DNA from: Pelosinus propionicus DSM 13327
GTDB taxonomy: Bacteria > Bacillota > Negativicutes > DSM-13327
DNA length: 57,239 nucleotides
Assembly: GCF_900114615.1 (NCBI RefSeq)
Contig: NZ_FOTS01000031.1
Span: forward strand, 1-57,239
Direction: 5' to 3'
Part shown: piece by piece, positions 1-9,691 of the stretch
Layout: every line of letters starts with the position of its first letter
Numbering within the stretch: the stretch's first letter is position 1
The notes under the pieces: model-generated
Databases searched by the model: none
What the model was told of the DNA's origin: nothing
Seen by the model: the letters and a program-made list of their open reading frames with translations, nothing else
Made by a program: the position numbers and the translations under genes

Positions 1-189
1 TCCTATAAGTTCAAGATTAAATCCATTTTCGATAAAAATTTGATTAGGTGTTTTTCCGGTTAAATACTCTCGAACAGCTTTAACTTTAAAATCAGTATGA
101 TAGGATATGGAACGGTCAGATACTTTAATCACATTCGAATTTTTCAGTAATAGGCTTTGCTCTAAATTGTTGTACAAGATCTTGCTCAT
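1..189 (-). CDS. IS3-type transposase HTH protein (orfA-like), 3' part beyond window
   Basis: Read leftwards from an ATG at 189, 63 codons stay open to the window edge, with GGAGG at 196-200 as ribosome binding site. The start MSKILYNNLEQSLLL and a central SDRSISYHTDFKVKAVREY, followed by a GKTPNQIF segment, resemble the small helix-turn-helix proteins found as the first ORF of IS3/IS150-group elements in Clostridia and Bacilli. In that family the protein would bind the IS ends or regulate the transposase frame. Only the N-terminus is visible, so neither the second frame nor the terminal inverted repeats can be checked. It could also be a solitary remnant. Confidence 0.55.
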   Translation of the reverse strand, partial: MSKILYNNLEQSLLLKNSNVIKVSDRSISYHTDFKVKAVREYLTGKTPNQIFIENGFNLELIG

Positions 190-231: not shown

Positions 232-279
232 AAAATACCCCTTGTATTGGACTTTTTCTAAAATGTCCAATACAAGGGG
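232..279 (-). terminator. Intrinsic terminator of the leftward operon
   Basis: A perfect 15-bp inverted repeat (CCCCTTGTATTGGAC at 238-252, complement at 265-279) has a 12-nt loop. Read on the minus strand it is followed by a short T run (TATTTTT). It lies just downstream of the last gene of the leftward operon (ends at 343) and separates that operon from the IS-like ORF. Confidence 0.75.
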
Positions 280-342: not shown

Positions 343-1746
343 TTATACATGCATTCGTTGCTGATTATTCATTGAATATCCTTCTCTTGGAACATCACGC
401 ATGTCAAATGTATTATCTTTTATTTCAATTGTATTGAGTTTTTTAACAGTTCCATAAGCTTCTTTTAATGAAAGAGTATCTCCTCTCCCTGAAAGAATCC
501 ATAATGTCTTATACCCCTGAGGTATTGAAAGAAGCTTATCTTCACCTTTGCCATCAGTAAAATACACTAATAAATTGATCTTTTTATTATTAGCATATTC
601 AAAAACCGGGTTAAACTTAGTACTGCCTCTTACATTCATTCGATCCTTTATATCCTTGACGGATTTGATAGTATAAACACGTCTAATATCACTATCGCAT
701 TCTATAATCGTAATTTCATGATTAACATTTTTCACTATACTGAGCACTTCTTTAATAGCTTGATTAAATTCTTCATCACTAATGCTTCCGCTTATGTCAA
801 GGGCAACAGCAATTTTTGCTTTATGACTATTAAGCTGTCCTCTTAAATCCAATCGATCAGGCTGCCTTCTATTTCTTCTTGTTATCGTCTTCTTTTTACT
901 GCTTTCAACAGTTCCCATTAGCCTCTTAAGATACAAATTCCAAGGCAATTCAGACTTACTATTTTTAAGTGATGTGATCATACTTTCTAAATAAGCTGGA
1001 ACAGTACCTTTTTGAGAATGATTAATAGACTTCTCCGTAAATTCTTTAAGTGTTTTTTCATCTAAATCACTAATGTCTTCCCAAATGTCATGGGTTTTTT
1101 CAGGATCGTAGTCAAGTTCTATGATTTCATCGTTATTACTATCATCTTCTACTGCATCTTCATCTTCTTCTAGTAAATCAATGGCAGTTTGAATTTCTTC
1201 TGCATAATATTCAAAGGACTCAAATGGCAAGAGTTTTAAAGAAAGATTTAAATTTACCCATTCTAAAGTTGTTGCATAGGGCGGCAAATGGTCTAAATAT
1301 GTATTTACAACTACATCCATTGCCATATTAACAGCTAATGTTCCATATTTAGTCTTATATTCTTTTGCTCTTATTAGGTGCATAGATATGATATGGAGTA
1401 TCTCGTGTTTAATTGTGCTTTCCATTTGTTTTATCGTAAGAGTTAAAAAAATGATGGGGTTAAAATAGATAACATATTTTGAACCTTTAAAATTGACGGC
1501 AGTTGGACTACTTATATCAAATCGTATTTCTCTAGACATTTGAAACAAAAAATATCCATAGAAATTATCTTTATCCTCCATAAGACTTAAAGTAACTTTA
1601 TCTACAAGACTAAAAAACTCTTCTTTAAAATCATTTGGTATATGTATCTTAGAATTATTATCTTTGTTTTCTTTTAAAAATACAGTAATTATTTTATATG
1701 CTTCTTCATAAATCCCTTTTGCAAGGGTGTCAAAATAAGTTTCCAT
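343..1746 (-). CDS. Putative metallopeptidase fused to VWA-like domain (DUF2201 family)
   Basis: 467 residues. The N-terminal half has a zinc-peptidase motif HEILH (114-118) in the context STIKHEILHIISMHL, with a downstream MAMD near 144, matching the putative metallopeptidase region of DUF2201 proteins. An acidic linker (about 190-215) precedes a C-terminal von Willebrand A-like domain with a MIDAS motif DISGSIS (317-323) and a later FTDGKG. Proteins of this type are normally encoded beside a MoxR AAA+ ATPase, as here: the ATPase gene ends 6 bp upstream, and the ATG at 1746 follows AAGGTGATG overlapping that gene's end. The family pattern suggests a metal-dependent partner loaded or remodelled by the ATPase (inference). 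The gene is AT-rich, like the whole operon. Substrate is unknown. Confidence 0.85.
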   Translation of the reverse strand: METYFDTLAKGIYEEAYKIITVFLKENKDNNSKIHIPNDFKEEFFSLVDKVTLSLMEDKDNFYGYFLFQMSREIRFDISSPTAVNFKGSKYVIYFNPIIFLTLTIKQMESTIKHEILHIISMHLIRAKEYKTKYGTLAVNMAMDVVVNTYLDHLPPYATTLEWVNLNLSLKLLPFESFEYYAEEIQTAIDLLEEDEDAVEDDSNNDEIIELDYDPEKTHDIWEDISDLDEKTLKEFTEKSINHSQKGTVPAYLESMITSLKNSKSELPWNLYLKRLMGTVESSKKKTITRRNRRQPDRLDLRGQLNSHKAKIAVALDISGSISDEEFNQAIKEVLSIVKNVNHEITIIECDSDIRRVYTIKSVKDIKDRMNVRGSTKFNPVFEYANNKKINLLVYFTDGKGEDKLLSIPQGYKTLWILSGRGDTLSLKEAYGTVKKLNTIEIKDNTFDMRDVPREGYSMNNQQRMHV

Positions 1747-1752
1747 ACATCA

Positions 1753-2883
1753 TCACCTTATTGAACTATAAGCTTTAAAATAGGATTCTACAAACGCTTC
1801 ATTTTCTATGGCATATTTGTACACCTCAGTATAGCTATTCTTTATATCCTTTATAATTCCTATCATTAAATCTACAGGATATATTTTTAAAAAATCAATC
1901 AATCTATCAATATAATAATTTGGGTTAGAATCATCGTTTTTTATAGTTGCTTCTAAGTTTTTAAGAATATTCTTTGCGGATAAATAGAGTCTTGTATGAC
2001 TTTCGTTTTTCACTTTTTCTACAACAGATACGTGAAGAGAATTTCCAGAAAAAACATCTTCAAAAGATAGTAGTGAATGATAGTCTGATTCAACAAAACT
2101 AACAAACTCTTCTGCAATGAGTTTCCCTACATTTCCTCTTATCACATTTAAGAATACGGATCTTGGTATCGAATCCTTTTTCTTTCTATAAATCTTATAA
2201 ATGCTAGATATTCTTTCATAGCTTCTTGGAGTTGCCCTAACATCATCTTCGTTTGTTTTGTGCAAGTATTCTGGAAAGGTTGAGATAAATTCTGTAACTT
2301 TTTGCTCAATTCCGGTATCGATTGCCCAATCTAACCACTGCATATAATCAGGTTCCATGTATAACCATACAAATCTGTTTTCTTGTGCTACATCCATATC
2401 TACAACTTGATAGTCGAAATCCGAGCCATATTTGCTGGAAGGATTCATGGCCGCTACTATTCTCACATCTGCATGCAGCTTATATCCATTAATTTCTCTA
2501 TTTAATATTAGATTCATAAGTTCCTGCTGTACTGTATGTTCACAACGATTGATTTCATCGATAAATAGAAGAACTGTTTTTCCGTTCGATATTTCTTCAT
2601 CAATTTCCCTTAGCTTATTATGAACTGTATTATATACTGTAGTTCTCTTTTCTTCTTTATCGCAATTATGATTCACTTTTGTATATGAATCTATAGTTGG
2701 AAGACCACCTATTTCACCTTCTTTAAGGAGATTCCCATCAATAACAATTAAACTCCAATGATTCATATTTGCAATTTCTTTGACTAAGGCTGTTTTCCCG
2801 ATTCCGGTTTCCCCAACAATTAAAGGAACCTCTCCAGTAGCTAGCACTAAATCAACACTTTTTAATGTATCTATAAAATTCAT
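1753..2883 (-). CDS. MoxR-type AAA+ ATPase
   Basis: 376 residues from the ATG at 2883. This start has GGTGGGAG a few bases upstream, whereas the in-frame GTG at 2895 lies inside that binding site. Seen: Walker A GETGIGKT (24-31), Walker B VLLFIDEIN (D109-E110), sensor-1 region AAMNPSSKYG, and an ATP-binding core followed by a helical C-terminus. This is the MoxR/RavA-like AAA+ group that acts as chaperone or remodelling ATPase with VWA-domain partners. It is the middle gene of a three-gene operon, between a repeat protein (stop 13 bp upstream of this start) and the metallopeptidase/VWA protein, so the three products probably act as one complex. Confidence 0.88.
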   Translation of the reverse strand: MNFIDTLKSVDLVLATGEVPLIVGETGIGKTALVKEIANMNHWSLIVIDGNLLKEGEIGGLPTIDSYTKVNHNCDKEEKRTTVYNTVHNKLREIDEEISNGKTVLLFIDEINRCEHTVQQELMNLILNREINGYKLHADVRIVAAMNPSSKYGSDFDYQVVDMDVAQENRFVWLYMEPDYMQWLDWAIDTGIEQKVTEFISTFPEYLHKTNEDDVRATPRSYERISSIYKIYRKKKDSIPRSVFLNVIRGNVGKLIAEEFVSFVESDYHSLLSFEDVFSGNSLHVSVVEKVKNESHTRLYLSAKNILKNLEATIKNDDSNPNYYIDRLIDFLKIYPVDLMIGIIKDIKNSYTEVYKYAIENEAFVESYFKAYSSIR

Positions 2884-2895
2884 TATATCTCCCAC

Positions 2896-3705
2896 CTATT
2901 TTATCTTCAGCTTTTCATCTACCGTTATTTTTTTTGCTTTTTTACTTCCATAGTTATAAATAAACATGATTTTATCCATTGGCATAATATCACTATTTTT
3001 ATCTATAATACTACAATTTAAATAGTCTCTAACATATTTTTCTTCAACATCTTCATTTGACAGTGCTTCCTTGACTACTTGTTCTAATTCATCAATCGAA
3101 ATTTCTATATCTTGCATGACATATTTTATCACTAAAATATTTACTTTCAGAAATTCTAAGATTTTATTTTTATCTAAATCAGATATAAGGCGAATAGCCC
3201 TTTCGTCGTTCTTGACAGCGATAAGCTTTGCATTATGTGTAGGTAATTTTATATAGCGTAATGCATCGTAACTTATTGTTACTGCCTCTTCTTGCACACT
3301 TTCGCAAGGTTCTTTTATAAACTTTATTGAATCGTAATTTTTTCTGACCGCTAATAACTGCAATTCCTCACTTGGATGAGTTACATATTTTATAGCCCAG
3401 CCAGTCTGATTTATAGCTAGTTTGATTAACGCATCATTTGGATCTTTTATATACTCTAAGTTAATCCATCCATCATGTATAGCTTTTATCTTCATGTCTT
3501 CTGTAGGGTTATTTATAAATTGAATCGCTCGGCCATTATTATTAATAGCTATTTTTTGCATCTCTCTCGTTGGAGAATCGATATATTGTAATGCAAGTCC
3601 ATTTTTTTTAATAGCTAATAATTTCATCTCGTCTGTAGGATGATCTATATATGCGATAGCATTGGGATTATCCTTTATCATTTCAATAAGCTTTGATTGT
3701 TCCAT
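2896..3705 (-). CDS. 22-residue tandem repeat protein (DUF4116-like), first gene of MoxR/VWA operon
   Basis: 269 residues. Residues 23-176 are seven back-to-back 22-residue repeats with the pattern P-[ST]-x-[ED]-x4-A-[IV]-x5-A-[IL]-x-[YF]-[IV], for example PTREMQKIAINNNGRAIQFI. The pattern predicts paired short helices stacking into a solenoid, as in DUF4116-type repeats. A non-repeat C-terminal domain (177-269) follows, with a basic tail. No signal peptide or membrane segment. A weak site AGGT lies about 12 nt before the ATG. Heading an operon with a MoxR ATPase and a peptidase/VWA protein, it is a candidate recognition or scaffold subunit (inference). No function is established. Confidence 0.8.
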   Translation of the reverse strand: MEQSKLIEMIKDNPNAIAYIDHPTDEMKLLAIKKNGLALQYIDSPTREMQKIAINNNGRAIQFINNPTEDMKIKAIHDGWINLEYIKDPNDALIKLAINQTGWAIKYVTHPSEELQLLAVRKNYDSIKFIKEPCESVQEEAVTISYDALRYIKLPTHNAKLIAVKNDERAIRLISDLDKNKILEFLKVNILVIKYVMQDIEISIDELEQVVKEALSNEDVEEKYVRDYLNCSIIDKNSDIMPMDKIMFIYNYGSKKAKKITVDEKLKIK

Positions 3706-3889
3706 AATGGTACTTTACCTCTGTTATTATTTTTTATGTAATCATTGAGTATTTTTTAAGTGAATCTAAATAGTATAATTATACCACTGTATAAAAAAAG
3801 GAGCTATCAATGCTGCTGAAATAATACTTTGCAGCCGATCGCAAGTTCTGTTCCAGCAAGTCTCTTAACTTTTTCCCAATTTTTTCCTA

Positions 3890-3918: not shown

Positions 3919-3949
3919 ATACACAAGTAAAACGATTGGAGTTGAAAAG

Positions 3950-3970
3950 ATGATTATTCTTTCTTGCTAA
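3950..3970 (+). CDS. Leader peptide MIILSC of ABC-F attenuator
   Basis: A six-codon ORF (ATG ATT ATT CTT TCT TGC TAA) follows a GGAG site at about 3938-3941. Its last codons (CTTTCTTGC, 3959-3967) are the exact complement of GCAAGAAAG at 4026-4034 and can also pair with GCAAGAA at 4111-4117. Ribosome stalling on this peptide would therefore change the fold of the leader RNA. Short leader ORFs with this logic precede many ABC-F and erm genes. The peptide sequence itself is not one I recognise. Confidence 0.6.
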   Translation: MIILSC

Positions 3971-3990
3971 TTTTAGAAGCATAATAGAGT

Positions 3991-4016
3991 GGAGAGGTAA
4001 CCCCCTCTTGTTTTAT
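3991..4016 (+). terminator. Attenuator terminator in ABC-F leader
   Basis: GGAGAGG (3991-3997) can pair with CCTCTT (4004-4009, one G-U) around a 6-nt loop and is followed by GTTTTATT. It lies 20 nt after the leader-peptide stop and before the ABC-F start, the usual place for premature termination without antibiotic. Confidence 0.5.
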
Positions 4017-4106
4017 TGTGCCTATGCAAGAAAGATACAAATTCTTTTCACTCAAAATATAGATCTTTGTCATGTCTAATCTGGGCCTGGCTTTGCTGTA
4101 TGTATG

Positions 4107-4134
4107 AGCTGCAAGAATGTACTTTCTTGCAGCT
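4107..4134 (+). promoter_or_regulatory. Perfect 11-bp hairpin in ABC-F leader
   Basis: AGCTGCAAGAA (4107-4117) and TTCTTGCAGCT (4124-4134) form a perfect stem with a 6-nt loop, 16 nt before the GGAGGG binding site at 4151-4156. Its left arm shares GCAAGAA with 4026-4032, so the leader-peptide region could pair with either. It is a good candidate for the alternative (anti-terminator or sequestering) fold. Confidence 0.55.
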
Positions 4135-4162: not shown

Positions 4163-5641
4163 ATGTCTTTAATACACGTTACAAATCTGACCTTTGGTTA
4201 TGATGACAGTTATGATAATATATTTGAAAAAGTGAATTTTCAAATTGATACCGATTGGAAGTTGGGTTTCGCAGGAAGAAATGGCAGAGGGAAAACTACA
4301 TTTCTTAACTTATTGTTGGGAAAATACGAATATAGTGGCTCTATTTCAGCAAAAACGAACTTTGAATATTTTCCTTTCAAGGTGACAGAACCGAAAGATA
4401 ATACGATCGATATAATTGAAAATATCTATCCAGACTATCTTCTTTGGCAGGTCATGCGTGAATTATCGCTGTTGCAGGTTTCAGACGATGTTTTATATCG
4501 TCCTTTTGAGACACTTTCAAATGGTGAACAGACAAAAGTATTGCTTGCCACCTTGTTTCTAAAAGAAAATAGATTTTTACTGATTGACGAACCGACAAAT
4601 CATCTGGATATGCATGCAAGACAAATTGTCAGTGAATATCTAAATACCAAGCGGGGCTTTATTTTGGTATCTCACGATAGAGCGTTTCTGGATCATTGTA
4701 TTGACCATATTCTGTCAATAAATAAGACACAGATTGATATCCAAAAAGGTAACTTTTCAACTTGGTGGGAAAACAAAAAAATGCAAGATAACTTTGAACT
4801 TGCAGAAAACGAGAAACTTCGCAAAGATATTATACGTTTACAAGCTGCTGCCAAGCGCACATCGGATTGGTCAGATCAAGTAGAAAAAACTAAGTTTGGA
4901 ACGAAAGATTCAGGTTTAAGGCCGGATAGGGGGTATATAGGGCACAAATCTGCTAAGATGATGAAACGCTCTAAATCAATCGAAGCAAGACAGCGGTCAG
5001 CTATTGAAGAAAAATCCATGCTGCTTAAAAATATTGAAACTTCGGATAGACTGAAAATCTCGCAGACGGATTTTTACACAAACCGATTTGTGGAACTGCA
5101 AGATATTTCAATGTTCTATGGACAGAAAAAAGTTTGCGAGGGCGTACAATTCACGATTGAGCGAGGAGATCGAGTGGCGTTATATGGAAAAAATGGATCG
5201 GGTAAGTCGAGCCTGATTAAGTTGATTTGCGGAGAGGATATTTTTTATACAGGCACGATAAGAAAAGCAAGTCAGCTTATCATATCCTATGTTGCACAAA
5301 ATGCCTCTCACCTTAACGGAAATTTAAGCGACTATTCCAGAGATCATAAGATTGATGAAAGTATTTTTAAGGCTATCTTACGAAAATTGGATTTTTCGCG
5401 CGTTCAATTGGAAAAAGATATATCTGATTTTAGTGATGGACAGAAGAAAAAAGTTTTACTCGCGAGAAGCCTTTGTGAAAAAGCCCATTTGCATGTTTGG
5501 GATGAACCACTTAACTTTATCGATGTTATATCACGCATGCAAATAGAAGAATTATTGCTTGAATATCGCCCAACGATTCTCTTTGTAGAACATGATAGTG
5601 AGTTTTGTAAAAATATTGCAACAAAGATAATCGAACTTTGA
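4163..5641 (+). CDS. ABC-F ribosomal protection ATPase (Lsa/CplR-like)
   Basis: 492 residues from the ATG at 4163, which has GGAGGG at 4151-4156. The frame is open further upstream but has no binding site there. Two ABC domains without membrane segments: first Walker A GRNGRGKT (38-45), signature LSNGEQ, Walker B LLIDEPTNHLD and switch LVSHDR; second Walker A GKNGSGKS, signature FSDGQKKK, Walker B HVWDEPLNFID. The lysine-rich linker between them is the region that reaches the ribosomal peptidyl-transferase centre in ABC-F factors. The start MSLIHVTNLTFGYDDSYDNI and the 492-residue length fit the Lsa/CplR group, which dislodges lincosamides, streptogramin A and pleuromutilins. A leader peptide and alternative hairpins point to drug-induced attenuation. 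The exact drug range cannot be read from the sequence. Confidence 0.88.
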   Translation: MSLIHVTNLTFGYDDSYDNIFEKVNFQIDTDWKLGFAGRNGRGKTTFLNLLLGKYEYSGSISAKTNFEYFPFKVTEPKDNTIDIIENIYPDYLLWQVMRELSLLQVSDDVLYRPFETLSNGEQTKVLLATLFLKENRFLLIDEPTNHLDMHARQIVSEYLNTKRGFILVSHDRAFLDHCIDHILSINKTQIDIQKGNFSTWWENKKMQDNFELAENEKLRKDIIRLQAAAKRTSDWSDQVEKTKFGTKDSGLRPDRGYIGHKSAKMMKRSKSIEARQRSAIEEKSMLLKNIETSDRLKISQTDFYTNRFVELQDISMFYGQKKVCEGVQFTIERGDRVALYGKNGSGKSSLIKLICGEDIFYTGTIRKASQLIISYVAQNASHLNGNLSDYSRDHKIDESIFKAILRKLDFSRVQLEKDISDFSDGQKKKVLLARSLCEKAHLHVWDEPLNFIDVISRMQIEELLLEYRPTILFVEHDSEFCKNIATKIIEL

Positions 5642-6574: not shown

Positions 6575-9500
6575 TTATTGTGGAATTGATTTCTTGGCAT
6601 CGTTCAGTGAATTATTTTTTGTAGTTGCATCTGGCTGTGCTTTGTACCAGGTAGCATACATAACAGGCAGCACTAGTAGTGTCAATAGGGTTGCTCCCAG
6701 CAAGCCGCCGCCAATGGCAACCGCCATGGGACCCCAAAAAGCACTGAATACCAGTGGAATCATAGCTAGGATAGCAGCTGAGGCCGTCAGCATTATAGGA
6801 CGGAAGCGGAGGATGGTGGAATCTATAATGGCATCCCACAGTGACTCACCAGTCGCCAAATGCTGTTCAATCTGGTCAGTCAGAATGATCGAGTTGCGCA
6901 TAATGATACCGGACAATGCCAGAATTCCCAATTGGACCACAAAACCCATGGGGCTTCCAGTAAGCAAGAGACTGACAGCTACTCCGATAATTCCAAGCGG
7001 GGCAGTTAAGAGGGTAAGCAGCATTTTCGGTATACTTTGCAGTTGCATCATAAGCAAAATCGTAATAATGAGCATCATGGCCGGAATAGGCTCCGCCAGA
7101 AATTTGCCACTTTTCATGCTTTCCTCCGTCGTACCGTCAAATTCTATACTGTAGCCTGCAGGCAGGCTGCTTCGTAATTCCTGGAGTTCATCGTAAACTT
7201 GTGTGGTTACGTCCGTACCAGTAAGGATGGATGAAGGATTTAGTTCTGCCTGAACAATGATCATGGGGAGGAGATTACGCCGATAGATTAAGCCTTCCTC
7301 GGCATCATAACGGATGGTGGCGATTTGGTCAAGTGGAACATATTTACCGTTGCCAATGTGAATGTTGAGGTCTTTTATGTGTTCAGGACTATTTCGGTCC
7401 TCTTCCGAAAACCGGAAAACCATACCTACGGTTTTATCGCGTTCACGGAATTCAGCAATGGACGCTCCAGACAGCTGTACTTGCAGCGATGCAGCCAAAT
7501 CCTGGGAGCTGAGACCCAAAGCCCTTGCTTTTGCCTGGTCAACCTCCAGGTGCATTACTTTGCTTTTCTCATTCCAGTTGAGGTTTACATTTTGGGTAGC
7601 AGGGTGGGCAGCCATGATGGTGCGGACTTGTTCGGCGATTTGACGGATTCTTTCATGGTCTGGGCCTTTTACCCTCAGCATTACCGGATAATCAGCTGCC
7701 GGTCCGTTGAATAATATCTTGACATGTCCTTGAACGTCGGTGAATTCAGTATTTAGTAGTTGTTCAGTCTTTTGCGCCAGTTCGTTTCGGGCCTGGACAT
7801 CCTTGGCCACTATAATAAATTCGGCGAAATTCGATTTATGGAATGTTGGCTCAAAACTTAGCACAAAGCGGGGAGCTCCTTCACCCACGTGATAGGTGTA
7901 GTAAGAAATATTCGGGTCACCGTCCAATTTATCGGCAAACTGGAGGGCCACTTTCTCCGTGTTGATGACGGATGCTCCTTCCTGTAATTTCAGCTGGACG
8001 ATGACTTCTGGCCGGCTGGAGGCAGGGAAGAACTCCTGTTTTACCAATCCCAACAGAGCTATGGAACCGATAAATGCAGCGGCAGTAACGGCCAGTACCG
8101 TTTTGCGGTGATACATGCACCATAGTAAGATGCGTTTAAAGTGGCGATAGAACGAGGTATCATAGAGGTTGGGGTGCGCATGGGTTTTGACTGTTTGCTG
8201 TGTTGGTTTTATTTTAAGAAGCAAGTAGCCGAGCAGTGGCGTTACTGTTACGGCAGCCATCCAGGAAACAACAAGAGCAAAGAATACAACCCAGAAGAGA
8301 GTGATGCAAAACTCGGAGGCAGAACCCTTAGAAAAAGCGATGGGTATAAATCCGGCGCAGGTAACCAGCGTACCAGTCAGCATGGGAAACGCGGTGGCCT
8401 TATAAGCATAGCAGGCAGCATCAAAGCGGCTCCAGCCTTGCTCCAGCTTGACGATCATCATTTCAATAGCGATAATAGCATCATCGACCAACAGACCAAG
8501 TGCGATAATTAGAGCGCCCAGTGAGATACGCTGTAGGTCGATGCCTGTCAGATACATCAGAGTAAAAGTAATGGCGATAACTAGTGGTACAGTTAGCGCC
8601 ACGACTACACCGGACCGAAAGCCAAGGCTGGCAAAGCTTACGATTAAGACGATGACGATGGCTTCGGCCAGAGATTTAACAAATTCGTCGATGGAGGATT
8701 CCACGACTTTTGGTTGATTGACAGTTTGATTGATTTCAAGGCCTGCGGGCAGCTCTTGTTTGATTTGGGAGAGAGCAGTATCGAGATTTTTACCCAGTGT
8801 CAAAATGTTTCCTCCAGGCTCCATAGCCAGCGAAATGCCGATGGCTGGCTGACCATTATAGAACATTTTCGGATCAGCCGGCTCGGCATAGGCGCGTGTT
8901 ACCACGGCAATATCCCCCAGTTGAAAGGTGCGGCCACCAACCTGAATGGGCGTCGTTTGAACATCTTCCAGATTTTCAAACATGCCGCTAATTCGCAAAT
9001 GCACATTGTCAGATGCCGTTTCCAACATGCCGGCAGCGACCATGGCATTCTGCTCCTGCAGGGCAGCTGTAATTATAGAAGGATCAATACCTAAGCGAGC
9101 TAGCTTGCTATTTTCTATTTCAATGTAGATTTGTTCTGTTTGTACCCCCAAGAGCTGGACTTTGCGTACACTGGGAATGCCCAGCAGAATGCGGCGAATT
9201 TTTTCGGATTTCTCCCGCATTTCTTCATAAGTGTAACCATCTCCGGTCAATGTGTAGACGACGCCGTATACTTCATCGAAGCGGTCATTAAAGTTAGGAT
9301 CCAAAACGCCTGCAGGGAGGGCGCTCCTGATATCATTCACCATATTACGGGCTTCCAACCATCTGGCCCGGATTTCTTTAGGAGACACTTGCTCATTGAG
9401 ATTGACATAAATCACCGTTTGCCCCGGTGTAGAGTAACTCTTGAGATAGTCAATCCCTGGAAGATCCTGTAGTTTTTTTTCAATTTTATCTGTGACCTGT

Positions 9501-9691
9501 TCTTCCATCTGGCGTGCAGTAGCTCCCGGCCATGCAACGCTGATAACCATTTGTTTAATGGTGAAATTAGGATCTTCCATGCGTCCCAAATTTCGGTAGG
9601 CGAAAATACCAGACAGAAAAAAGACAAAAACTAGGAAATAAATGAATTGTTTATGGTTTAGTGACCAGGCGGTAAGGTTAAAATTTATCAC
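6575..9691 (-). CDS. RND-family efflux pump, inner-membrane permease (AcrB/AcrD/AcrF family)
   Basis: 1038 residues, the usual length for a hydrophobe/amphiphile RND pump. TM1 is at about 12-30, with two large periplasmic loops and two blocks of membrane helices (about 340-490 and 850-1010). The proton-relay pair of TM4 is present as LGLLVDDAI (near residue 403). The GTG start at 9691 overlaps the adaptor's stop in GTGA, so translation is probably coupled. In the usual tripartite design it exports drugs or toxic compounds using the proton gradient, with the adaptor encoded upstream. No TolC-like outer-membrane gene is in the window, so the third part must be elsewhere. Substrate is unknown. 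A TetR gene heads the operon. Confidence 0.93.
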   Translation of the reverse strand: MINFNLTAWSLNHKQFIYFLVFVFFLSGIFAYRNLGRMEDPNFTIKQMVISVAWPGATARQMEEQVTDKIEKKLQDLPGIDYLKSYSTPGQTVIYVNLNEQVSPKEIRARWLEARNMVNDIRSALPAGVLDPNFNDRFDEVYGVVYTLTGDGYTYEEMREKSEKIRRILLGIPSVRKVQLLGVQTEQIYIEIENSKLARLGIDPSIITAALQEQNAMVAAGMLETASDNVHLRISGMFENLEDVQTTPIQVGGRTFQLGDIAVVTRAYAEPADPKMFYNGQPAIGISLAMEPGGNILTLGKNLDTALSQIKQELPAGLEINQTVNQPKVVESSIDEFVKSLAEAIVIVLIVSFASLGFRSGVVVALTVPLVIAITFTLMYLTGIDLQRISLGALIIALGLLVDDAIIAIEMMIVKLEQGWSRFDAACYAYKATAFPMLTGTLVTCAGFIPIAFSKGSASEFCITLFWVVFFALVVSWMAAVTVTPLLGYLLLKIKPTQQTVKTHAHPNLYDTSFYRHFKRILLWCMYHRKTVLAVTAAAFIGSIALLGLVKQEFFPASSRPEVIVQLKLQEGASVINTEKVALQFADKLDGDPNISYYTYHVGEGAPRFVLSFEPTFHKSNFAEFIIVAKDVQARNELAQKTEQLLNTEFTDVQGHVKILFNGPAADYPVMLRVKGPDHERIRQIAEQVRTIMAAHPATQNVNLNWNEKSKVMHLEVDQAKARALGLSSQDLAASLQVQLSGASIAEFRERDKTVGMVFRFSEEDRNSPEHIKDLNIHIGNGKYVPLDQIATIRYDAEEGLIYRRNLLPMIIVQAELNPSSILTGTDVTTQVYDELQELRSSLPAGYSIEFDGTTEESMKSGKFLAEPIPAMMLIITILLMMQLQSIPKMLLTLLTAPLGIIGVAVSLLLTGSPMGFVVQLGILALSGIIMRNSIILTDQIEQHLATGESLWDAIIDSTILRFRPIMLTASAAILAMIPLVFSAFWGPMAVAIGGGLLGATLLTLLVLPVMYATWYKAQPDATTKNNSLNDAKKSIPQ

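What the first reader, a model, noticed from the sequence alone, without database searches (positions are those of the whole stretch)
343..3705. Three-gene operon: 22-residue repeat protein, MoxR ATPase, metallopeptidase/VWA protein
The three genes are tightly packed, one strand, AT-rich, bounded by a terminator and an IS-like ORF. Seen: seven 22-residue repeats, AAA+ motifs, HEILH plus DISGSIS. MoxR-VWA pairs are known; a dedicated repeat subunit with a peptidase motif suggests a substrate-selecting, ATP-driven proteolytic or remodelling machine, perhaps defensive. The last point is inference.
Basis: partly seen in the sequence, partly recalled or inferred. Interest (0 to 1): 0.7.

Follow-up and report, generated by a model that had tools for sequence, protein, structure and literature searches.

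The report
Mobile three-gene ATPase–peptidase cassette
Three bacterial genes that occur together, and that appear to move as one small block between distantly related anaerobic bacteria, encode an ATP-driven motor, a probable zinc protease and a coil-shaped helper protein; their nearest relatives sit in giant bacterial viruses, and what the set does is unknown.

Summary
The operon is real and intact: REP (DUF4116 α-solenoid; nine 22-residue repeats, not seven) – MOX (MoxR-like AAA+) – VWA (DUF2201: HExxH motif plus VWA domain). In 398 genomes of the phylum, strong REP and strong VWA hits occur in the same nine, within 3 kb; order is kept in 42 of 43 database loci, the 43rd being a truncated contig. 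The HxxxH, MIDAS and Walker residues tested are invariant; the HExxH glutamate is kept in 35 of 36.

New: (1) it is a self-contained ~3.5-kb cassette with its own upstream region and no other widely conserved neighbour, at about five different sites in seven Pelosinus genomes; (2) it crossed classes: synonymous codons still agree where rpoB is saturated; (3) its MOX–VWA pair is sister to that of jumbo phages AR9/BpSp, which lack REP beside it.

Best reading: a mobile accessory ternary machine; REP presents a fixed ligand, MOX drives VWA, the zincin cleaves. Only sequence supports the mechanism. Defence is possible, unproven: no PADLOC hit for REP or VWA, no defence-rich surroundings seen, REP strongly conserved.

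The parts
2896..3705 (-). REP: DUF4116 repeat protein, 269 aa, first gene of the operon
   Evidence: Pfam DUF4116 50 bits over cut-off 24.9; PHROG 5925 E 7.5e-51; strong REP and strong VWA in the same 9 of 398 genomes
3106..3699 (-). nine 22-residue two-helix repeats of REP (residues 3-200)
   Evidence: AlphaFold2 pLDDT 95.1; lag-22 identity 53 v 12.4 +/- 3.4 in shuffles
2899..3105 (-). C-terminal helical domain of REP (residues 201-269) with the conserved tail GSKKAKKIxVDEKLK
   Evidence: alignment A1, 39 sequences; helices between 204 and 268 in the model
1753..2883 (-). MOX: MoxR-like AAA+ ATPase, 376 aa from the ATG used by most relatives (GTG start at 2895 also possible)
   Evidence: Pfam AAA_5; 14 residues checked in Walker A, Walker B, sensor 1, arginine finger and sensor 2 regions invariant in 35 of 35 (motif names recalled)
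2791..2814 (-). Walker A motif GETGIGKT of MOX
   Evidence: sequence; residues 24, 27, 29, 30 and 31 (G, G, G, K, T) invariant in 35 of 35
343..1746 (-). VWA: DUF2201 metallopeptidase-like domain, acidic linker of varying length and VWA domain, 467 aa
   Evidence: Pfam DUF2201_N and DUF2201 over cut-off; alignment A2
1378..1407 (-). zincin motif HEILHxxxxH (residues 114-123) of VWA
   Evidence: H114, H118, H123 in 36 of 36, E115 in 35 of 36; also in the phage and plasmid relatives aligned
784..798 (-). MIDAS motif DISGS (residues 317-321) of VWA; D398 at 553-555 belongs to it
   Evidence: D317, S319, S321, T376, D398 in 36 of 36
3778..3786 (-). extended -10 promoter-like element TGGTATAAT, part of an upstream stretch conserved with the cassette
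   Evidence: aligned in six Pelosinus loci, in one of them with A for the second G; upstream 115 nt alike between Pelosinus L015 and Clostridium sp. CCUG 7971, score 62 v shuffled maximum 24, but not with Megasphaera, 12.5 v 18.5; not listed by the promoter scan
238..279 (.). 20-nt inverted repeat between the operon and the transposon-like ORF (terminator or IS end)
   Evidence: the terminator scan did not list it
1..189 (-). truncated ORF with a weak transposon HTH match, at the end of the window
   Evidence: HTH_Tnp_2 19.5 bits, below cut-off 23.8

Best explanation
The three genes form a horizontally mobile, self-contained accessory machine. MOX is an AAA+ motor that by analogy with other MoxR-vWA pairs forms a ring and engages the MIDAS of VWA (inferred). 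VWA carries both the MoxR-coupling domain and a zinc-peptidase domain (motifs shown, catalysis inferred). REP is a rigid nine-repeat solenoid of nearly fixed length that binds one conserved ligand and presents it to, or holds back, the motor-peptidase (inferred); its conserved C-terminal tail is the likeliest docking site or processing target (inferred). ATP hydrolysis would then remodel the client and the zincin cleave it. Shown: composition, order, invariant catalytic residues, co-inheritance, mobility, kinship with jumbo-phage pairs. Not shown: assembly, ATPase, proteolysis, client, biological role. The confidence below is for the mechanism; the first two rivals are rival roles of such a machine.
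For: Co-occurrence: REP at E<=2e-100 and VWA at E<=1e-200 in the same 9 of 398 genomes; the next REP hit is at 4e-4, the next VWA hit at 1.7e-35. Order REP-MOX-VWA in 42 of 43 database loci (L053 starts inside VWA) and in 23 of 23 strong loci fetched from genomes (these overlap in part). No other gene family recurs in more than 5 of 43 loci. Distances of REP, MOX and VWA correlate at 0.92-0.94 over 30 rows. Catalytic residues invariant. Mobility: outside two pairs of genomes that share a right flank, flanks do not align between Pelosinus genomes whose cassettes are 83-94% identical; the ppsA site of G003 lacks the cassette in G001 and G004. Cross-class transfer (classes): same-codon rate 75-76% (expected 49-56%) for the cassette, 42-44% (expected 39-42%) for rpoB, Pelosinus G003 v Desulfosporosinus and Romboutsia; for the window's own genome 67-68% (47-54%) v 41-46% (39-42%). 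Phage kinship: SH-aLRT 99 in both trees.
Against: No experiment. The VWA structure model is poor (pLDDT 57.5), so the zincin fold was not confirmed. D144, a candidate metal ligand or second-shell residue, is N in 6 of 36, and E115 is D in one, L052. No complex was modelled. REP has no Foldseek match in the PDB at E<=0.001, so its ligand cannot be inferred. MOX-MIDAS and REP-VWA contacts are analogy only. Some close pairs of loci keep both flanks (e.g. L040/L041, L038/L039), so movement is not constant, and the cassette tree mostly follows lineage.
Confidence: 0.5

Rival explanations
1. Anti-phage or anti-element system: REP is the sensor, and on infection the MOX-VWA machine degrades a phage or host protein; a MoxR-vWA ternary conflict system with a new third component.
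For: Mobile accessory cassette; nearest kin in jumbo phages, in AR9 behind an annotated early promoter; published MoxR-vWA ternary systems have a motor, a vWA protein and a third sensor-like part (PMC7159879, passages seen; PMC12839542, one passage seen).
Against: No PADLOC match for REP or VWA; among 139 flank ORFs of 38 loci only scattered PADLOC hits, no control set, and the commonest Pfam families are transport and metabolism (25 of 122 families shown); REP is strongly conserved and of nearly fixed length, unlike the rapidly evolving iSTAND parts described; every MOX relative in the searched phage (394 records) and plasmid (35 records) collections is under 60% identity.
Confidence: 0.27
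2. Physiological chaperone of the RavA-ViaA, NorQD or CbbQO type: it matures or repairs a metalloenzyme or membrane complex of anaerobes; the HExxH domain trims or merely binds the client.
For: The titles of the 43 loci name Clostridia- and Negativicutes-type bacteria (anaerobic habit recalled); REP conserved as if for one fixed partner; known MoxR-vWA pairs act on dedicated complexes (PMC3893208, PMC10585395, starts of abstracts in the listing).
Against: No client gene travels with it: the next most frequent neighbour family is in 5 of 43 loci; patchy presence, 23 of 60 relatives including own; location differs within a genus.
Confidence: 0.3
3. A retained jumbo-phage host-takeover or virion-processing module without benefit to the cell (selfish or decaying).
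For: Sister relation to the AR9 and BpSp pairs; phages carry unlinked REP-like proteins too; three loci show broken or interrupted genes (L026, L027, L054).
Against: Catalytic residues invariant and open frames of normal length in most loci; REP not found beside the pair in the 11 phage stretches with the pair or its VWA gene that were scanned.
Confidence: 0.08

Closest known systems
MoxR plus metallopeptidase-vWA pair of jumbo phages (PMC7824862, passage seen); PHROGs 1297 and 1314; here AR9, PBS1, BpSp and N4-like phages
   Same: Same two proteins in the same order, HExxHxxxxH and DxSxS kept in those aligned; AR9 and BpSp are the sister group in both trees
   Different: No REP match in the AR9, BpSp and LPJP1 stretches nor in the other phage stretches with the pair; identity about 30%; the published proposal is virion assembly, and no virion gene recurs beside the bacterial cassette
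MoxR-vWA ternary conflict systems (VMAP, iSTAND; PMC7159879, passages seen)
   Same: Motor, vWA protein and a constant third component; a peptidase attached to the vWA protein occurs in some
   Different: Third component is a DUF4116 solenoid; the peptidase domain is N-terminal, not a variable C-terminal effector; no effector diversity among 36 VWA sequences
RavA-ViaA, NorQD, CbbQO chaperone pairs (partly recalled; starts of abstracts)
   Same: AAA+ motor with a MIDAS vWA partner
   Different: VWA here adds an HExxH domain and there is a third, solenoid gene; no client gene is linked
Other bacterial DUF2201 loci of the phylum (L089-L103)
   Same: A MOX match near the DUF2201 gene in 13 of 15
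   Different: No REP match in 15 of 15, though the contig of L097 begins inside MOX; placed further from the cassette than the AR9/BpSp pair in both trees

Membership tests
DUF2201 metallopeptidase-VWA family (PF13203 + PF09967) | both domains over the Pfam cut-off in one protein | tested here: met
   30.8 v 23.2 and 56.8 v 26.4 bits
DUF2201 metallopeptidase-VWA family (PF13203 + PF09967) | HExxH metal-binding motif conserved among close relatives | tested here: met
   H114, H118, H123 in 36 of 36, E115 in 35 of 36
DUF2201 metallopeptidase-VWA family (PF13203 + PF09967) | peptidase activity | not testable with these tools
   needs purified protein; I recall no assayed member
MoxR AAA+ ATPases | match to the AAA_3 model (PF07726; MoxR-specific as recalled) over its cut-off | tested here: not met
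   19 bits v cut-off 27; AAA_5 is met, 35.1 v 22. Hence 'MoxR-like'
MoxR AAA+ ATPases | gene partner with a MIDAS vWA domain | tested here: met
DUF4116 proteins (PF13475) | match over the Pfam cut-off | tested here: met
   50 v 24.9 bits; alpha-solenoid model, as the contact-based model of the family in PMC8078820 (passages seen)
VMAP or iSTAND ternary conflict systems (PMC7159879) | third component with a VMAP or iSTAND domain | tested here: not met
   REP matches only DUF4116 over cut-off in Pfam; no PADLOC or NCBIfam family
VMAP or iSTAND ternary conflict systems (PMC7159879) | variable effector domain on the C-terminus of the vWA protein | tested here: not met
   no added domain behind the VWA domain in the 36 aligned rows
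jumbo-phage MoxR / metallopeptidase-vWA pair (PMC7824862) | adjacent MoxR-like gene and peptidase-vWA gene, nearest in sequence | tested here: met
   the pair only, the phages lack REP there
known anti-phage systems in PADLOC-DB 2.0.0 | component match | tested here: not met
   none for REP and VWA at E<=1; MOX only weak ATPase matches, best E 1e-4

The most novel reading that the evidence does not exclude
A new, horizontally mobile ATP-dependent proteolytic immune system of anaerobic Bacillota, built from a jumbo-phage host-takeover pair (MoxR-like ATPase and zincin-vWA) turned to bacterial use by adding a DUF4116 solenoid that recognises one conserved, possibly viral, target.
Probability: 0.22. 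Interest if true: 0.85.

Novelty: new variant of a known kind. Interest (0 to 1): 0.6.

Why it matters
MoxR-vWA machines are widespread and few have known clients (recalled; the abstract of PMC3893208 says widespread). This cassette is small (about 3.5 kb), complete in nearly every locus seen, has moved between classes with its upstream region, and has a defined third subunit, so it can be moved into a laboratory host and tested as a unit. Its sister relation to a jumbo-phage pair of unknown role links two open questions: what the phage pair does during infection and what the bacterial one does without a phage. It could also give a function to a DUF4116 protein; two held papers mention that family, and the passages seen test no function of it.

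Tried and rejected
Tried without result: scans of viral contigs with single REP and VWA sequences and with the MOX profile found no relatives; the VWA and REP profiles found 4 and 1. Rfam on the window gave no match. Sequence search of the PDB gave nothing for VWA, one match at E 0.098 for REP and only ClpC and ClpE P-loops for MOX. The VWA structure model was poor; its fold search listed mainly VWA domains. REP against the PDB: no Foldseek match at E<=0.001, best VIA-align Z 6.7, which the tool calls common for helical repeats; the viral library gave 26 matches at E<=0.001, 15 of them named DUF4116 proteins of giant viruses. Pfam's DUF4116 model misses true REPs (G012, G042, G062 and G181 have no match but E<=2e-100), so own profiles were used.

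Considered and rejected: housekeeping gene set (location varies within the genus; codon test); part of a known defence island (one SNF2 helicase beside L036, one AbiGi and one AbiGii match, ShosA, mad2, mad3 and PsyrA models in two or three ORFs each among 139 flank ORFs at E<=1e-20; no control set, so no enrichment claim either way); cargo of the searched plasmids or phages. Upstream TG-TATAAT elements outside Pelosinus were listed but not tested against chance; the promoter scan found no excess (18 v 21.9 expected). Papers: DUF4116 with MoxR, 0 papers; MoxR with metallopeptidase and von Willebrand, 3 papers by listing; MoxR, vWA, defense system, horizontal, 6 by listing; I saw no description of this three-gene set, but read passages of five papers only.

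Rows dropped: A1 used 38 of 42 REP loci plus the window, A2 35 of 43 VWA loci plus the window, A3 34 of 42 MOX loci plus the window (left out: near-duplicates, truncated and broken ones, L044's REP ORF that reads 310 aa from an earlier start); the tree used the 30 rows common to the three. The flank scan used 139 of 140 listed ORFs of 38 loci (one long ORF left out) and not the 89 listed ORFs of loci L104-L127. In one search, 23 of 60 relatives matched; of the 22 besides the window 20 were fetched and checked for REP, G035 and G051 were not. A working note says 20 of 20 for the loci checked; the correct count is 23 of 23.
Full report
What is there. On the minus strand of a Pelosinus-type genome (the nearest loci are Pelosinus; the window is contig C41 of G000) three genes lie nearly end to end: REP 3705-2896, MOX 2883 (or 2895)-1753 and VWA 1746-343. 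REP is a DUF4116 protein, MOX an AAA_5-type ATPase, VWA a DUF2201 protein with an N-terminal metallopeptidase-like domain and a C-terminal VWA domain. The repeats of REP are real (53 identities at lag 22 against 12.4 +/- 3.4 in shuffles), and the AlphaFold2 model (pLDDT 95.1, pTM 0.86) shows nine two-helix repeats followed by a separate helical C-terminal domain. This is a predicted, not a solved, structure.

Is the set conserved? A scan of the species genomes in genome contigs with VWA gave 43 loci. REP and MOX lie upstream of VWA in 42 of them; the 43rd, L053, is a contig that begins inside VWA. In 398 genomes of the phylum drawn evenly, the REP profile hits nine at E<=2e-100 and one more at 4e-4; the VWA profile hits nine at E<=1e-200 and 13 more genomes at 1.7e-35 or weaker; the two sets of nine are the same genomes, and the matches lie within 3 kb. 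Of 23 strong loci read with flanks from genomes, 23 have REP-MOX-VWA in that order; of 15 other DUF2201 loci none has a REP match (one contig, L097, is too short to tell), while 13 have a MOX match. In two loci something is inserted: L106 has a DDE transposase gene between MOX and VWA, L026 a reverse-transcriptase ORF inside MOX, as in a group II intron.

Are the motors and active sites intact? In 36 aligned VWA proteins H114, H118, H123, R126, N140 and N148 and the MIDAS residues D317, S319, S321, T376 and D398 never vary; E115 is D in one; D144 is N in six, all Desulfosporosinus or Gracilibacter. The 14 MOX residues checked never vary in 35. The linker between the two VWA halves is acidic and varies in length. 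The HExxHxxxxH pattern also stands in the phage and plasmid relatives aligned. REP is 265 to 273 aa in the 39 aligned rows, with 72% mean column identity and a conserved tail motif; its pairwise distances follow those of MOX and VWA (r 0.94 and 0.92, slopes 1.15 and 0.99). That is the pattern of a fixed partner rather than of a sensor in an arms race.

It moves as a unit. Of eight genomes of the genus seven hold it. Between them DNA similarity is confined to the cassette, from about 120-190 nt before REP to some tens of bases after VWA, except that G005/G006 and G004/G007 share a right flank. G003 and G006 cassettes are 94.0% identical with no flank match. At least about five sites are involved (the window and G007 are cut by contig ends). 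In G003 the cassette follows ppsA (identified by eye); in G001 and G004 the same neighbours enclose a small unrelated ORF instead, and G004 has its cassette elsewhere. Not every pair shows this: L040/L041, L038/L039 and L115/L116, for example, keep both flanks.

It crosses taxonomic classes (Negativicutes and Clostridia). At conserved residues the cassette of Pelosinus G003 uses the same codon as that of Desulfosporosinus L020 in 75% of cases (49% expected from the codon usage of the two) and as Romboutsia L024 in 76% (56% expected); for rpoB the figures are 42% (39%) and 44% (42%), i.e. saturated. For the window's own genome the cassette gives 68% (47%) and 67% (54%), rpoB 41% (39%) and 46% (42%). 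With Megasphaera L040, of the same class as Pelosinus by recollection, the cassette is near saturation (50-55% v 48-49%). The 115 nt upstream of REP still align between Pelosinus L015 and Clostridium sp. CCUG 7971 (score 62, shuffled maximum 24) but not between L015 and Megasphaera L040 (12.5, maximum 18.5). The tree of 30 joined cassettes mostly groups by lineage, with Pelosinus closer to Desulfosporosinus and Gracilibacter than to Megasphaera. I saw no gene for its own movement inside it; how it moves is unknown.

Nearest kin. In trees of VWA and of MOX the cassette is one clade (SH-aLRT 100 and 99) and its sister is the pair of jumbo phages AR9 and BpSp (99 and 99), ahead of the other bacterial DUF2201 pairs included (quick trees, long outer branches). 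AR9's record annotates an early promoter just before the pair; in the three N4-like phages read the pair lies near polymerase genes. REP-like proteins exist in other phages (Salicola SCTP-2, Agrobacterium Atu_ph07, Slicky01, one viral contig), with no MOX or VWA match in the stretches read. The pair in jumbo phages has been noted before, with a proposed role in virion assembly (PMC7824862, passage seen). I found no description of the bacterial trio in the paper searches made.

How it most likely works. A motor (MOX), a coupling domain with a built-in zinc peptidase (VWA) and a fixed solenoid (REP) make a ternary machine: REP binds one conserved ligand, MOX remodels it through the MIDAS contact, the zincin cuts. 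Composition, conservation and co-inheritance are shown; assembly, catalysis, ligand and role are inferred. Published MoxR-vWA ternary conflict systems have the same three-part logic with other third parts (PMC7159879 and PMC12839542, passages seen), but the VMAP, iSTAND and variable-effector features are not met here. A defence role gains from mobility and phage kinship and loses from ordinary surroundings: no PADLOC match for REP or VWA, transport and metabolism among the commonest flank families (25 of 122 shown), scattered PADLOC hits among 139 flank ORFs without a control. A dedicated-client chaperone is about as likely.

Verdict. The set is a new variant of MoxR-vWA machines, worth testing because it is compact, nearly always complete and mobile.

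Noticed in passing
window 4163-5638 (+): Gene with two ABC ATPase stretches and no transmembrane part seen (ABC-F type by eye) beside the cassette, preceded by inverted repeats at 3943-4050 and 4107-4134 and a very short ORF that look like an attenuation leader; no Rfam match at the gathering score.
   Followed up: partly
window 6575-9691 (-): Long ORF (1038 aa) that by eye is an RND-type efflux pump; not searched in a family library.
   Followed up: no
L026:2449-5043: Insertion with a reverse-transcriptase ORF (RVT_1) inside the MOX gene, as in a group II intron.
   Followed up: partly
L106:8681-10228: DDE transposase gene inserted between MOX and VWA.
   Followed up: yes
L027 around 3211; L054:6001-7412: Broken reading frames in MOX (L027) and VWA (L054); real decay or sequencing error.
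   Followed up: no
VWA residue 144 (window 1315-1317): A conserved Asp of the peptidase domain is Asn in six rows (four Desulfosporosinus, two Gracilibacter), with the three motif His residues kept.
   Followed up: partly
L083:4985-5929: In phage AR9 the gene before the MoxR-like ATPase encodes tandem helix-turn-helix-like repeats (by eye), a possible third partner there.
   Followed up: no
L110:6317-6436: Left junction of the cassette at ppsA carries a short stretch that resembles IS3-family ends (recalled), with diverged copies elsewhere in Pelosinus genomes.
   Followed up: partly
L085:6001-8852: In Listeria phage LPJP1 the MoxR-like and peptidase-VWA matches are split over several short ORFs, so the copy looks broken or mis-sequenced.
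   Followed up: no
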